Of a DNA stretch of 46,773 bases, positions 128 to 11,007 are shown one piece after another. Below the pieces are notes generated by a model that had not been told where the DNA came from, ran no database searches, and saw only the letters and a list, made by a program, of their open reading frames with translations. The DNA is from a virus. The stretch is taken from the IMG/VR virus record IMGVR_UViG_3300036851_000164, positions 1-46,773 of that record; one strand, written 5' to 3'. The first letter of the stretch is position 1. Each line of letters begins with the position of its first letter. A program made the translations under genes and the position numbers.

Positions 128-144
128 CTCGCCTCTGTGGTCAT
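1..144 (-). CDS. Hypothetical protein, 5' part (gene continues at 46646 across the circular join)
   Basis: This is the N-terminal part of a 120-residue protein whose remainder lies at 46428-46646. The ATG at 144-142 overlaps the TGA of the gene at 141-587 in the ATGA manner. The protein begins MTTEASVTEGMVTADQFC. On the linear window only a GTG inside the gene looks like a start, so a linear annotation would truncate it by six residues. No domain was recognised; the middle is acidic and rich in Trp and Ala. Confidence 0.75.
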   Translation of the reverse strand, partial: MTTEASVTEGMVTADQFCPAGRWPRLWLINRKGHRKRMLAEFGRGDDG

Positions 145-587
145 GGTGTGGCTTCCCAAAGCAGTTTCTTTTGAAGCGGATGTTTATCGACGCGCGGACG
201 AGACGGGACCGACCATGAGCGCCCTGGCGTTTCTCCGATGAGACGCCACCCGCTTGCTTTCAAAGTTGCGCCATTTTCTGATGCCAAGATGTATGTTCCG
301 ATGCGCTTGAAGCCGAGAGCAAAGGCGGCTCTCGCGCAGGCACCGTAAAGAAACGAGCAGGCGTTTCGAGTTCCGTCAGTGGCGAGCCGCGTAACCTCAA
401 GAGTTAATCCATCATCCCGCCGCCGAGCGGTAGGACGCCCAACAATCGCCACCCCAACAACCTCACCTTCTTTCACGGCAGCCAAAGAGAACTTATGCCC
501 GACCACAGGCCCATGATGCCGATGAACCTTCTTAACGAAGGCATTGGCTTCATCGAGCGGAAGCGACATGAGTTCTAATTTGCTCAT
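141..587 (-). CDS. XF1762 family (GNAT-like) protein
   Basis: This 148-residue protein matches, from memory, the XF1762 family of phage and prophage proteins, whose fold resembles GNAT acetyltransferases. Recognisable stretches are HRHHGPVVGHKFSLAAV near residues 22-38, GVAIVGRPTARR near 44-55 and an acetyltransferase-like LYGACARAAFALGFKR near 80-95, followed by the ILASENGATLKASGWR segment. Substrate and role are unknown. It sits in the leftward operon with 4-base overlaps on both sides. The family assignment is good; catalytic activity is an inference. Confidence 0.8.
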   Translation of the reverse strand: MSKLELMSLPLDEANAFVKKVHRHHGPVVGHKFSLAAVKEGEVVGVAIVGRPTARRRDDGLTLEVTRLATDGTRNACSFLYGACARAAFALGFKRIGTYILASENGATLKASGWRLIGETPGRSWSVPSRPRVDKHPLQKKLLWEATP

Positions 588-5173: not shown

Positions 5174-5328
5174 GGCGGCGGGCAGCTCAAATCTGGGTAT
5201 CACAGTCAGCGTGGCCCGCCGCCGCACCAGCAACCCTCCTGTGGTTGTCACTGCTAAGTTGGCCGGTGCGTTTTGATTTCGGGGCGGGCATTGAATGGCT
5301 GGGTGACAAAGGCAAACTGGCCCGCCGC
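5174..5328 (-). repeat. Palindromic element cluster A (three copies)
   Basis: Copies lie at 5174-5223 (10/10 paired arm bases), 5223-5270 (8/9, plus a G-U pair if read as leftward RNA) and 5281-5328 (8/9). Each has exactly 30 bases between the arms. On the minus strand that interval begins CA and holds a core like TGATACCCA, TGACAACCA or TGTCACCCA at the same offset. The last codons of the IS110-like gene read through all three, and its stop codon lies inside the copy at 5174-5223. Confidence 0.85.
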
Positions 5329-6341
5329 CACGCCTGCCACAGATCGCGCAGCAAGCGTTTCTCCATGTAGCGTTGCGCGCGGCGATGAATATGCCCGTCA
5401 GACATGAACTCGCTGGCACGCTTTGCTGGTATCTTCGCCGCAGGTGCGACCGTTAGTCCGCTCTCTAGGGCGCGCTGGCGCTCATACTCTTTGCGAGCGA
5501 GATAAATGGCCCGATACTCGCCGTCGCCATTTCCCCTAATGAGCGCGTCACCGATGTTCCACATGCGCGAGCGACGCAGTCGGTTATAACCGTGCTCGAT
5601 CCAATCATCTTTCGCCGCTGACTTGCTCAAGCCGCCCTGGCGCACGCCGTCCATGACGGCGAGTCCCATGCGCTTCCAGAGTTTGCTGGGGGTAGCGTAA
5701 TTGGATAGATCACCCGCTTCGGCAACGATGATCGCCAGTGAGACTTCACCGAAGCCTCTGATCGTCTCGACCAAGGAATATACGGGAAGCTGCTTGGCGA
5801 GATTCGCCATTTCCGTCTTTGCCTGCTTCTCGATCGCGTCGAACGGTGCGCGAGAGGCTATTGCGGCCAAGATCACGGCACGCCATTCGATGTAGGCGGG
5901 CTCGTCAACGCCGTCCGACTTGCCTTTAGCTTCGGCTTCTCCGAGTGAGATCAAGTCCTGCGCTTGGGAGTTGATCCGCTTGCGGTCGGCGTCCGGTAGC
6001 GCGCGTGACCAACCTAGCGCCGTGCGTAGGAAACTACCCAAGGCAAGATCGGCCCGTTTGCGTTGTTCCATCGCAAATACACGCTGGCGATGCCAGCCGC
6101 GGATTTCCGAAATGAGTGGCCCGGAGTCGGCAGCTGCACGATGGGCGTCACTGCCAGGGTGGCCGTCTCCGGGCCTGCGGGCACCGATTGCTTGGGTGTC
6201 AACTGCAACTTGGCCCGCAGTAAGAGGATCGGCGGGGGCAGCCGTGTCGTGGGCATCATCGGGAGTGAGGCCCCCGCCGTTGGCGTCGGCATCTACAAGT
6301 TGGGCATCATAGGCCAGGTGGCCTTCGCCATTCTTAGGCAT
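5187..6341 (-). CDS. Phage protein with IS110-type (Transposase_20-like) domain and inserted repeats
   Basis: A 384-residue protein. Residues about 7-75 are four repeat peptides (GHLAYDAQ, GLTPDDAH, GQVAVDTQ, GHPGSDAH). From about residue 80 there is a helical region, then a helix-hairpin-helix-like segment (IRGFGEVSLAIIVAEAGDL, then WKRMGLAV) resembling the C-terminal domain of IS110-family transposases. The place where IS110 enzymes usually read QSG here reads RQGG, so the catalytic serine seems absent, and no DEDD N-terminal domain is visible. It is therefore likely a DNA-binding relative rather than an active transposase. The last ~50 residues are read through element cluster A. Confidence 0.7.
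   Translation of the reverse strand: MPKNGEGHLAYDAQLVDADANGGGLTPDDAHDTAAPADPLTAGQVAVDTQAIGARRPGDGHPGSDAHRAAADSGPLISEIRGWHRQRVFAMEQRKRADLALGSFLRTALGWSRALPDADRKRINSQAQDLISLGEAEAKGKSDGVDEPAYIEWRAVILAAIASRAPFDAIEKQAKTEMANLAKQLPVYSLVETIRGFGEVSLAIIVAEAGDLSNYATPSKLWKRMGLAVMDGVRQGGLSKSAAKDDWIEHGYNRLRRSRMWNIGDALIRGNGDGEYRAIYLARKEYERQRALESGLTVAPAAKIPAKRASEFMSDGHIHRRAQRYMEKRLLRDLWQAWRRASLPLSPSHSMPAPKSKRTGQLSSDNHRRVAGAAAGHADCDTQI
6118..6330 (-). repeat. Palindromic element cluster B (four tandem copies)
   Basis: Copies lie at 6118-6175 (arms 13/14), 6175-6220 (8/8), 6230-6279 (10/10) and 6281-6330 (8/10). Each interval between arms is 30 bases, and neighbours abut or share one base. Minus-strand cores read TGACGCCCA, TGACACCCA, TGATGCCCA and TGATGCCCA at the same offset. 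Spacing between copies is 51, 57 and 51 bases, all multiples of three, so the reading frame of the host gene is kept. Confidence 0.88.
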
Positions 6342-6978
6342 GGGCGCCCTCCATCAGTCGGAGAGCGCGCGGTCCGCTTTCAAGAATGTCCTTGACCTGT
6401 TTCTCGTTGGCGACTTTCTCAAGCGGCGTCTTGTCGTCGTCAGGCCATGCGATCTCCGTCACCATGCGATTGCAAATGTGCTCGCCGATGTGGAACTTGC
6501 GGGCGAAGTTGATCCAGTCGGCTTTGGTTGAGCTTCGCAAGCGAAGCTCGCCGCCAATGGTGCGGTCCCAAAAGCCATGAGCGACCGTCTTGCGGACCTT
6601 GCCAGCGGCAGCGACCTCGCCAGCGGTCGGCTCACGATGTGTCGGCAATGACCTCGAGTGCTGGCGGACAGACACGGCAAGAAACGGCTGGCCTTTCGGC
6701 ATGCCCGCGATGGCCGTGCTGCCGCGAGCGGCGCTGGCATCGATAGCCTGGGCATCACCCGAAATTTGGCCAGCGCCTTTGATAAGATCGGGGCGGGCAT
6801 TCCATTTCTGGGCATCATCAACAACGTGGCCCGCCCCGGAATAAGCGGCTTGTGCAATAGCAATCAGTCGCTCGAGCGTGCCGCCGGCATTCGCCCATTT
6901 CGCTATGGCGATATTTAATTCGACCTCCCGCTGACCAGGGCCGCCTGCATGCTTCATTGCATCGCTGATCGCTGTCAT
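6334..6978 (-). CDS. Phage hypothetical protein interrupted by two palindromic elements
   Basis: A 214-residue protein and the first gene after PL. Its N-terminus (EVELNIAIAKWANAGGTLER) and the segment AGKVRKTVAHGFWDRT are recognisable as a recurring alphaproteobacterial phage protein, from memory. Residues about 47-83 are two repeat peptides (GHVVDDAQ, GQISGDAQ) from element cluster C. CGGAGAG lies before the ATG at 6978. It overlaps the next gene by 8 bases. Function unknown. Confidence 0.7.
   Translation of the reverse strand: MTAISDAMKHAGGPGQREVELNIAIAKWANAGGTLERLIAIAQAAYSGAGHVVDDAQKWNARPDLIKGAGQISGDAQAIDASAARGSTAIAGMPKGQPFLAVSVRQHSRSLPTHREPTAGEVAAAGKVRKTVAHGFWDRTIGGELRLRSSTKADWINFARKFHIGEHICNRMVTEIAWPDDDKTPLEKVANEKQVKDILESGPRALRLMEGAHA
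6730..6838 (-). repeat. Palindromic element cluster C (two copies)
   Basis: Copies lie at 6730-6777 (arms GGCGCTGGC, 9/9) and 6789-6838 (arms CGGGGCGGGC, 10/10). Each has a 30-base interval and a minus-strand core TGATGCCCA. Copy spacing is 60 bases, so both are in the same frame. The arm sequences differ between the two copies, yet each is perfectly self-complementary. Confidence 0.88.
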
Positions 6979-6995
6979 GCCGCTCTCCGAAAAAT

Positions 6996-7023
6996 TGGCC
7001 GGGACTGACTGAACCCCCGGCCA
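6996..7023 (-). terminator. Hairpin with T run in the PL leader (possible attenuator)
   Basis: TGGCCGGG at 6996-7003 pairs with CCCGGCCA at 7016-7023 over a 12-base loop. In leftward mRNA the stem is followed by ATTTTT and then by the ribosome binding site of the first PL gene. This looks like an intrinsic terminator inside the leader, so PL transcription may be subject to attenuation or antitermination. The leader at 7024-7090 is very GC-rich and holds no gene. Confidence 0.5.
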
Positions 7024-7094
7024 GTGGCTAGGAAGGGGAGCGGCGTAACGGGGATGCCGCCCCGCCCTCAGCGGGGGGCGCCGAGGGTGAACAG

Positions 7095-7123
7095 AATATC
7101 GGACTAATTGTCCGGCTTGTCAA
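7095..7123 (-). promoter_or_regulatory. Leftward early promoter PL
   Basis: On the minus strand TTGACA (7123-7118), a 17-base spacer and GATATT (7100-7095) form a near-consensus sigma-70 promoter. Operator OL1 lies in the spacer. The start point should fall near 7088, leaving a leader of about 110 bases before the gene at 6978. The stretch 6979-7300 has no gene; it holds this promoter, three operators and the leader hairpin. Confidence 0.85.
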
Positions 7124-7171
7124 GGACAAATTATCCGAACAGTGGAATCAGAAAATCGGACAGGATTGCGG
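7100..7171. promoter_or_regulatory. Left operator cluster OL1, OL2, OL3
   Basis: Three 15-base sites of consensus CGGACAAATTATCCG: OL1 at 7100-7114 (CGGACTAATTGTCCG), OL2 at 7123-7137 (AGGACAAATTATCCG) and a weaker OL3 at 7157-7171 (CGGACAGGATTGCGG). Site starts are 23 and 34 bases apart, the mirror image of the right cluster. OL1 sits between the PL -35 and -10 boxes, so binding should block PL. Confidence 0.8.
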
Positions 7172-7300
7172 ATAGTGTCCCACCTAGAGGGTAAACAGCC
7201 CCGGACAGCCCAAGCGGAGGCTTCCTGAAGGCCCGCTCGATTTCCGCCCATAGTGAAGGCGGGCCAGCATAAGGGGGCTGTGGGGCTTTCCTAGAGGCTG

Positions 7301-7636
7301 CTACGGGGAAACGGCAGACTTTCTGGTGCCGCTGCCCCGAATTGCCGTTCGCGGTCGCCGAAGGCCACTTCCGGCCCTTCGGCTTGGCACCTCCCCGGCC
7401 CTTGATTCGCCGACTCTGAAAAGCTTGTCGGCGCTGACATTGCATATCTCGCAAAAAGCGGGAATTACGTCATGGGGGAGGGGATTAACACTCTCGCACT
7501 TTCGATAGGTGTCATATTCAAGGCCAAGATCAAGAGCCATGCCCTTGATCGAGAAACCGGCCAAGGATCGGGCCGCTTTAACGCGGCCTGCAAAAGCTCT
7601 GATGTAAGCCTTGTCCTGCTTGCGGCGCTTGGCCAT
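7301..7636 (-). CDS. XRE-family phage repressor (CI-like)
   Basis: A 111-residue protein with an N-terminal helix-turn-helix (GRVKAARSLAGFSIKGMALDLGLEYDT, about residues 18-44; recognition helix probably around LGLEYDTYRKCES). No S24 peptidase domain follows; the tail is a short basic stretch. The start MAKRRKQDK at 7636 is preferred to an in-frame GTG at 7687, which would place the N-terminus across the operators. It lies between OL and OR as in lambdoid immunity regions. Control of the lytic/lysogenic choice is inferred. Confidence 0.8.
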   Translation of the reverse strand: MAKRRKQDKAYIRAFAGRVKAARSLAGFSIKGMALDLGLEYDTYRKCESVNPLPHDVIPAFCEICNVSADKLFRVGESRAGEVPSRRAGSGLRRPRTAIRGSGTRKSAVSP

Positions 7637-9990: not shown

Positions 9991-11007
9991 GTGCGAGTCT
10001 ACTACAACGAGATCGACCGCTATTGCTGCGATTGGCTGCAAAACCTCATGGATGCCGGGCTGATAACGCCGGGAAAGATTGATGACCGAAGCATTGCCGA
10101 TGTCAGCCCGGAAGATGTCAGAGGCTACAGCCGCGTCCATTTCTTCGCCGGAATTGCCGGGTGGGACCTCGCCCTCCGACTTGCCGGATGGCCCGACGAC
10201 AGACCTGTTTGGACAGGAAGCTGCCCCTGCCAGCCCTTCTCAGCCGCTGGCAAAGGCAAAGCATCAGGCGATGAACGCCATCTGTGGCCCGAATGGTTCC
10301 GGCTTATCCGCGCAATTCGACCGCCAACAATCTTTGGTGAACAGGTTGAAGCGGCTGTTGGATGGGGCTGGCTCGACCTTGTTCACTCTGACCTGGAAGC
10401 GGAAGGCTACGCCGTTGGGTCGGCCGTATTACCAGCTTGCGGCATCGGCGCGCCGCATATCCGGCAGCGATTGTGGTTCGTGGCCGACGCCGATGGTTGG
10501 CAACACGGCGGGTTGCATGGAGAGCCCGCATGGGTATGTGAGCCCGACCGGGAACAGGCGCGGCCATCAAGGCAATCACATGCTCAGGCTTGCACGGTTG
10601 GCGAGTTGGCCCACTCCGACAGTTCACGATGCCGAGCGGGGCGGCCAGGAGAAGCGGGCGCAGGGCGAGACGCGCCACGGCTCGAACCTACAGGACTTCG
10701 CGCTGACGGCGGCTTGGGCAACGCCCAGGACAAGCGATGCAAAGGGCGGTCAACGGCTGATGACGCCGGATGGCAAGCGCACCAACAAGGCGGGCGACAA
10801 GGAATACGGGCCGAACCTTCAGGATCAAGCGGCTCTCATTGGTCCGACCTCATCTGGCTCCCCTGCACAGACGGCAAGCAAAGGCCAACTCAATCCGGCA
10901 TTTTCCCTCTGGCTCATGGGGTTCCCGCCCGAGTGGCTAAGCTGCGCGCCGCAGGCAACGCGATCAACCCGTGGCAAGCCGTCCCGTTCATCAAAGCGGC
11001 AATGTGA
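9991..11007 (+). CDS. DNA cytosine-5 methyltransferase (GTG start)
   Basis: A 338-residue enzyme transferring methyl groups to cytosine C5. Motif I is around HFFAGIAGWDLAL (about 50-62), motif IV is GSCPCQPFSAAG (about 78-89), motif VI is IFGEQV (about 114-119), motif VIII is the IRQRLWFVAD segment (about 158-167), and motif X is LRAAGNAINPWQAVPFI near the end. GTG 9991 follows a GGGAGAGGGG-like purine stretch. It is fully overlapped from 10082 by a second long frame. Likely role: self-modification against restriction, or regulation. Confidence 0.88.
   Translation: MRVYYNEIDRYCCDWLQNLMDAGLITPGKIDDRSIADVSPEDVRGYSRVHFFAGIAGWDLALRLAGWPDDRPVWTGSCPCQPFSAAGKGKASGDERHLWPEWFRLIRAIRPPTIFGEQVEAAVGWGWLDLVHSDLEAEGYAVGSAVLPACGIGAPHIRQRLWFVADADGWQHGGLHGEPAWVCEPDREQARPSRQSHAQACTVGELAHSDSSRCRAGRPGEAGAGRDAPRLEPTGLRADGGLGNAQDKRCKGRSTADDAGWQAHQQGGRQGIRAEPSGSSGSHWSDLIWLPCTDGKQRPTQSGIFPLAHGVPARVAKLRAAGNAINPWQAVPFIKAAM

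What the first reader, a model, noticed from the sequence alone, without database searches (positions are those of the whole stretch)
5174..6838. Family of nine palindromic elements with a fixed 30-base interior
Nine copies in three clusters share exactly 30 bases between their arms. On the minus strand the interior begins CA, has the core TGATGCCCA (or close) at the same offset, and ends in T. Arm sequences differ between copies (for example GGCGCTGGC, CGGGGCGGGC, CTGCGGGC, CGGCGGGGGC) but stay self-complementary at 8-14 bases. Different but paired arms mean selection on structure, so this looks like a DNA or RNA element, not just a peptide repeat. I know no named element with this design.
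Basis: seen in the sequence. Interest (0 to 1): 0.9.

Follow-up and report, generated by a model that had tools for sequence, protein, structure and literature searches.

The report
Phage guide-RNA hairpin array (TIGR-Tas)
The nine hairpins are guide-RNA genes of a phage TIGR-Tas system, a recently described kind of RNA-guided DNA-binding machinery; each carries two 9-letter guide sequences, and the gene for the protein that uses them lies in their midst.

Summary
In detail: nine minus-strand hairpins (5174-6838), each with a loop of exactly 30 bases. The interior is CA-N9-TGATGCCCA-N9-T, two hypervariable 9-mers framed by CCA and TG. About 420-445 copies occur in other IMG/VR phage contigs. 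Arms covary strongly (covariation score 0.754, shuffled 0.172); the 9-mers carry almost no shared information.

It is a TIGR-Tas stem-loop array (Faure et al. 2025, PMC12045711): box C is CCA, box D is TG, spacers A and B are 9 nt, palindromic edges replace edge repeats. The ORF at 5187-6341 is the effector, TasA type (Nop domain, no nuclease found). It passes the NCBIfam TIGR_Tas cut-off (123.8 vs 100 bits), and its model best matches TasR and TasH structures. Of 50 array contigs, 28 encode a Tas protein.

The kind is known; this is a new member. Not in the main text of the paper: tigRNA hairpins translated in frame inside the tasA ORF; in relatives, alternating pairs of abutting hairpins; spacers replaced while arms stay; one guide recombined from two halves. 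No natural target was found. The likely mechanism is RNA-guided DNA binding without cleavage, set by both spacers.

The parts
6789..6838 (-). tigRNA stem-loop 1: arm CGGGGCGGGC, CA, spacer A CGTTGTTGA, loop repeat TGATGCCCA, spacer B GAAATGGAA, T, arm; inside ORF 6334-6978
   Evidence: folds at -27.5 kcal/mol, z -3.4
6730..6777 (-). tigRNA stem-loop 2: arm GGCGCTGGC, spacer A AATTTCGGG, TGATGCCCA, spacer B GGCTATCGA; inside ORF 6334-6978
6282..6329 (-). tigRNA stem-loop 3 (imperfect arms GGCGAAGGC/GCCGACGCC): spacer A CCTGGCCTA, TGATGCCCA, spacer B ACTTGTAGA; in frame at the start of the tasA ORF
6230..6279 (-). tigRNA stem-loop 4: arm CGGCGGGGGC, box C reads CCT, spacer A CACTCCCGA, TGATGCCCA, spacer B CGACACGGC; in frame in the tasA ORF
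6175..6220 (-). tigRNA stem-loop 5: arm CTGCGGGC, spacer A AGTTGCAGT, TGACACCCA, spacer B AGCAATCGG; in frame in the tasA ORF
6119..6174 (-). tigRNA stem-loop 6: 13-bp arms with one mismatch, spacer A CCCTGGCAG, TGACGCCCA, spacer B TCGTGCAGC; in frame just before the TasA core
5281..5328 (-). tigRNA stem-loop 7: spacer A GTTTGCCTT, TGTCACCCA, spacer B GCCATTCAA; directly after the TasA core
5223..5270 (-). tigRNA stem-loop 8: arms CGCACCGGC/GCTGGTGCG, spacer A ACTTAGCAG, TGACAACCA, spacer B CAGGAGGGT
5174..5223 (-). tigRNA stem-loop 9: arm GGCGGCGGGC, spacer A CGCTGACTG, TGATACCCA, spacer B GATTTGAGC; the TGA stop of the tasA ORF lies inside this spacer B
   Evidence: folds at -25.5 kcal/mol, z -4.7
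5187..6341 (-). tasA ORF (384 aa), IS110/Nop-type RNA-binding protein; conserved core about 5316-6131, no nuclease domain found
   Evidence: PF02371 5.7e-5, phrog_4285 8e-25, NF052498 TIGR_Tas_endo 123.8 bits over cut-off 100, PDB 9MTY, fold match to TasR/TasH
6334..6978 (-). Upstream ORF (214 aa, unknown), carries stem-loops 1 and 2 in frame; its stop codon overlaps the tasA start (ATGCCTAA)
   Evidence: no family match
7095..7123 (-). Sigma-70-like promoter TTGACA-17-GATATT ahead of the operon
   Evidence: consensus match only (1 found, 0.6 expected)

Best explanation
A TIGR-Tas system of the stem-loop, TasA type in a temperate tailed phage. The transcript carries nine stem-loops. Each is processed to a tigRNA with spacer A and spacer B, anchored by box C (CCA) and box D (UG) on a dimer of the TasA Nop-type protein. 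Spacer A pairs with one strand and spacer B with the other strand of a DNA target; from the published rules I derive a target that reads spacer A, 0-2 nt, reverse complement of spacer B. Having no nuclease domain, TasA probably binds and bends the target and so blocks transcription or replication of competing DNA, or steers a phage DNA transaction. Shown here: anatomy, covariation, family membership of the protein, co-occurrence with arrays. Taken from published relatives: processing, dual-strand pairing, dimer. Inferred: non-cleaving blockade (about 0.75) and its use against other mobile elements (about 0.5).
For: Two 9-nt spacers between CCA and TG boxes at fixed places in 340-424 copies; arm covariation 0.754 vs 0.172 shuffled; effector passes NCBIfam TIGR_Tas_endo, matches TasR 9MTY at 4.6e-6 and, as a family profile, 1.8e-13, with TasH at 4.9e-9; AlphaFold model (pLDDT 93.9) has only TasR and TasH chains below E 1e-3; 28 of 50 array contigs have phrog_4285, 0 of 14 control genomes; arrays flank the Tas gene on its strand in all 25 loci examined; the paper describes this array type.
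Against: No tigRNA expression or DNA binding could be tested; no natural target was found; 22 of 50 array contigs show no Tas match, though many are fragments. NCBIfam calls the family an endonuclease, but no nuclease domain was found in this protein.
Confidence: 0.95

Rival explanations
1. The repeats are a peptide repeat (G-[QH]-x3-D-A-[QH]-x3-A) kept for a protein function; the palindromes are a by-product of GC-rich codons.
For: In the window all but one of the copies read in this frame, and several lie inside ORFs.
Against: Arms covary far beyond shuffles; in other contigs the longest open frame at an element falls in any of several frames and on either strand; many arrays have spacings of 49 and 62 nt that break any frame; the last copy has its stop codon inside the loop and its 3' arm outside the ORF; stop codons in spacers are not depleted in the Tas frame overall.
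Confidence: 0.02
2. A palindromic mobile element that inserts in genes, like the Rickettsia palindromic elements.
For: Palindromic ends, presence inside ORFs, and multiple copies resemble those elements (general knowledge; papers found).
Against: Copies cluster around a Tas gene and mostly on its strand; copies with identical arms have unrelated interiors at fixed 9-base positions, the reverse of what copying of an element leaves; no sign of copies scattered through the rest of the window.
Confidence: 0.02
3. Bridge RNA of an IS110-type transposon, used for recombination rather than for binding.
For: The protein shares the Transposase_20 region and fold with IS110. In relatives that carry two arm types, A-type is followed by B-type after 47-52 nt (67 cases), B by A after 55-68 nt (44 cases), A by A once, which recalls the two loops of a bridge RNA.
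Against: No DEDD/RuvC domain was found in the window protein; the IS110 model is far below its cut-off (30.9 vs 140); many hairpins per protein instead of one RNA; the window itself lacks the alternating arm types.
Confidence: 0.03

Closest known systems
TIGR-Tas, stem-loop arrays with TasA (Faure et al. 2025, PMC12045711, Fig. 7, Peromyscus gut contig)
   Same: Stem-loops with two spacers of about 9 nt between box C and box D, variable palindromic edges, a nuclease-free Nop-type TasA, several subarrays around the gene, phage origin.
   Different: Here the loop repeat is constant (9 nt, TGATGCCCA or close) and the loop exactly 30 nt; hairpins lie in frame inside the tasA ORF and the ORF before it; relatives have strictly alternating abutting hairpin pairs. 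The paper's supplement was not available to check for these.
TIGR-Tas, dual-repeat arrays with TasR or TasH (PMC12045711; PDB 9MTY, 21KL)
   Same: Spacer A, loop repeat, spacer B order, 9-nt spacers, UG and CCA boxes, related protein fold.
   Different: No edge repeats but palindromes; no RuvC or HNH domain.
IS110 family transposases and bridge RNA (PMC11208160; PDB 8WT6)
   Same: Related C-terminal region and fold; guides in loops; two-loop design resembles the paired hairpins of the relatives.
   Different: No RuvC-like catalytic domain found, many hairpins, no sign of transposition.
Archaeal box C/D sRNP (Nop5)
   Same: Two guides between C and D boxes on a Nop-domain dimer (as described in PMC12045711).
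   Different: No methyltransferase or L7 partner known here; published TIGR targets are DNA.

Membership tests
TIGR-Tas | Effector with Tas/Nop-type domain | tested here: met
   NF052498.1 TIGR_Tas_endo 123.8 bits, cut-off 100; 9MTY 4.6e-6; fold match to TasR and TasH
TIGR-Tas | Tandem units with two short (8-12 nt) variable spacers each | tested here: met
   Two 9-nt blocks at 0.02-0.17 bit per column; nine units in the window
TIGR-Tas | Spacers framed by box C (CCA) and box D (UG), the same in edge and loop parts | tested here: met
   CCA-N9-TG twice per unit; in RHph_X2_25 box D reads CG in both places in three of four units
TIGR-Tas, stem-loop type | Variable palindromic edges instead of edge repeats | tested here: met
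   10 of 11 stem pairs with changes on both sides; covariation 0.754 vs 0.172
[quoted passage not shown]
   Window and all 25 relatives examined
TIGR-Tas | Array transcribed and processed into tigRNAs | not testable with these tools
   Needs RNA; a promoter-like site lies upstream
TIGR-Tas | Guided binding of DNA through both spacers | not testable with these tools
   Target searches gave no excess over controls
TasA subtype | No nuclease domain | tested here: met
   Only Transposase_20 in Pfam; upstream ORF has no family match
IS110 transposase | Full-length IS110 model and N-terminal DEDD/RuvC domain | tested here: not met
   transpos_IS110 30.9 bits, cut-off 140; no such Pfam domain
Any Rfam family | Score at or above the gathering threshold | tested here: not met
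   0 matches in the window

The most novel reading that the evidence does not exclude
In sister phages with alternating A-type and B-type hairpins, the working unit is a pair of abutting hairpins with four guides, a form between a tigRNA and an IS110 bridge RNA; these arrays diversify by replacing 9-nt spacers in place and by recombining at the loop repeat, so that guide halves are reshuffled. In the window lineage the guides are also coding sequence of their own effector, so that cutting out tigRNAs would lower TasA synthesis.
Probability: 0.25. Interest if true: 0.8.

Novelty: new member of a known kind. Interest (0 to 1): 0.5.

Why it matters
TIGR-Tas is a young field whose main open questions are what TasA does, what the spacers target and how arrays gain spacers. 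This window leads to a lineage with a constant, searchable 30-nt loop, hundreds of related guides in phage contigs, and closely related phages that differ in their spacers, which makes array turnover measurable. It also points to a cultured phage (Rhizobium phage RHph_X2_25 on Sinorhizobium americanum) with a tasA gene beside a repressor gene, where the function can be tested.

Tried and rejected
Rfam search: nothing. Genome-contig pattern scan: only chance hits, useful as a negative control. Pairing between spacers A and B: none beyond shuffles. Self-targets and cross-targets in fetched contigs, with shuffled pairs and foreign spacers as controls: no excess in the predicted geometry; single-spacer matches in own contigs 261 vs 223 +- 18, probably base composition. 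One exact predicted target of guide 1 in contig L239 was followed by a scan of viral contigs: 6 hits, only two of them related to each other, judged chance. Blast of an A-B unit against isolate phages: none. Covariance search of five alphaproteobacterial genomes: none, but only 150 candidates per genome were scored. Tas search in 297 genomes of one order: none over the cut-off; the best hit, G213 (97.6 bits), was examined and no loop-30 array was found. Plasmids: no Tas relative. Targets of the RHph_X2_25 guides in two sibling phages: nothing better than 3 mismatches. Coding selection on arrays in general: stop codons not depleted in the Tas frame.

Full report
CHECK OF THE OBSERVATION. The window is a 46,773-base IMG/VR virus record. 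Its genes look like those of a temperate tailed phage: terminase-like and head proteins, an integrase match, ERF and YqaJ recombination proteins, RusA, a C5 methyltransferase and a Mom-like modification protein. On the minus strand nine hairpins lie at 5174-6838, each with exactly 30 bases between its arms. Perfect arms of 8 bp or more occur seven times at loop length 30 and at most five times at any other loop length from 10 to 60.

RELATIVES. An exact pattern scan of viral contigs found 81 stretches. Of 154 distinct hits, 119 pair at least 8 of 9 arm bases, whereas none of 121 hits in bacterial contigs does, the best being 7. A relaxed scan gives 340 copies, and 424 after two more scans. The full core with near-perfect arms occurs 139 times at loop 30 and at most twice at any other loop length from 24 to 36. 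In 71 aligned copies the stem has 89.5% paired cells (shuffled 56.6%) and a covariation score of 0.754 (shuffled 0.172; slid partners at most 0.133). Spacer columns carry 0.02-0.17 bit each.

IDENTIFICATION. The ORF between the clusters (5187-6341, minus) matches Transposase_20 and phrog_4285. A literature search on IS110 and guide RNAs led to TIGR-Tas (Faure et al. 2025, PMC12045711). That paper describes dual 9-nt spacers flanked by box C (CCA) and box D (UG), and a second array type in which variable palindromes replace edge repeats and form stem-loops, with nuclease-free TasA. All of this fits. The protein passes the NCBIfam TIGR_Tas_endo cut-off (123.8 vs 100 bits), while the IS110 model stays far below its own. 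It matches the TasR entry 9MTY by sequence (4.6e-6; family profile 1.8e-13, with TasH at 4.9e-9). The predicted fold (pLDDT 93.9) has TasR and TasH chains as its only matches below E 1e-3, followed by IS110 recombinases with bridge RNA. No nuclease domain was found, so it is of TasA type. Of 50 array contigs 28 have a phrog_4285 match, against none of 14 control genomes. In all 25 loci examined, elements lie next to the Tas gene on its strand; a few further copies lie far off or on the other strand.

MECHANISM. Published relatives process arrays to tigRNAs whose two spacers pair with opposite target strands (PMC12045711). From the published 3' overhang and cut rule I derive the target as spacer A, 0-2 nt, reverse complement of spacer B on one strand; this derivation is mine. 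Without a nuclease the likeliest action is binding and bending that blocks transcription or replication; the authors propose this for TasA too. What the phage aims at is not shown. In an isolate relative, Rhizobium phage RHph_X2_25, the Tas gene lies between a repressor gene and an XRE regulator gene, which is compatible with superinfection control or regulation of lysogeny; this is inference.

WHAT SEEMS NEW. (a) Guides nested in the effector gene. In the window no in-frame ATG, GTG or TTG lies between the ATG at 6341, before four hairpins, and the conserved core; that ATG overlaps the stop of the preceding ORF and has GGAGGG in front of it. So the four hairpins must be translated if the core is, and three more are translated at the C-terminus up to a stop inside the last spacer. 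In G025 three hairpins and in G037 one lie inside the coiled-coil part of the core. This is not general: other arrays have spacings of 49 and 62 nt, and stops are not depleted overall. (b) Paired hairpins. In many relatives two arm types alternate: A to B after 47-52 nt (67 cases), B to A after 55-68 nt (44 cases), A to A once; one such unit folds as two stems, though not more stably than its shuffles (z -1.2). The window does not show the two arm types. (c) Turnover. G015 and G019 differ in the spacers of two hairpins just after tas while the next A-type hairpin is kept apart from one spacer base; L030 and L066 have 98% identical flanks and identical arms but unrelated spacers in one hairpin (the alignment of repeated units there may be shifted). 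(d) One clear recombinant guide: G012 11603 has spacer A of G012 9536 and spacer B of G012 11493. Most other shared halves may be drift. I could read only the main text of the paper, so (a)-(d) are new to me, not proven new.

TARGETS. Tests in own and related contigs with shuffled pairs and foreign spacers show no excess. Scanning all viral contigs for the target of guide 1 gave 6 hits, about what chance gives by my estimate. Two sibling phages of RHph_X2_25 give nothing better than 3 mismatches. The targets remain unknown.

VERDICT. Real, strongly supported, and a member of a known kind (TIGR-Tas, stem-loop array, TasA). It is of more than routine interest because of the nested guides, the paired hairpins and the visible spacer turnover.

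Noticed in passing
L287:2400-4000 (Rhizobium phage RHph_X2_25): A cultured phage relative with a Tas gene (30% identity) and at least four loop-30 stem-loops around and inside it, most with box D as CG instead of TG in both places; the Tas gene lies between a repressor C gene and an XRE gene.
   Followed up: partly
L017 / G011:11650-12930: Array of 24 hairpins in strictly alternating arm types inside one long open frame; all 25 spacings in this contig are multiples of 3 and no in-frame stops fall in the spacers.
   Followed up: partly
L312 (G213, a bacterial genome of the order searched), about 6000-7400 on the minus strand: Tas relative (97.6 bits) in a chromosome, after an overlapping gene that contains a 14-bp stem with a 34-nt loop whose inner part TGCCGCAAGGCCA could form a GCAA tetraloop between a TG and a CCA box (read by eye).
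   Followed up: partly
phages H2-H5: Rhodococcus Peregrin, Mycobacterium Rich, Microcystis Mvi-JY20, Gordonia Morrissey: Distant Tas-like proteins annotated as hypothetical; no stem-loops of this design found nearby.
   Followed up: partly
window 141-587 (-) and 9991-11007 (+): A Mom-like DNA modification protein and a C5 cytosine methyltransferase in the same phage.
   Followed up: no
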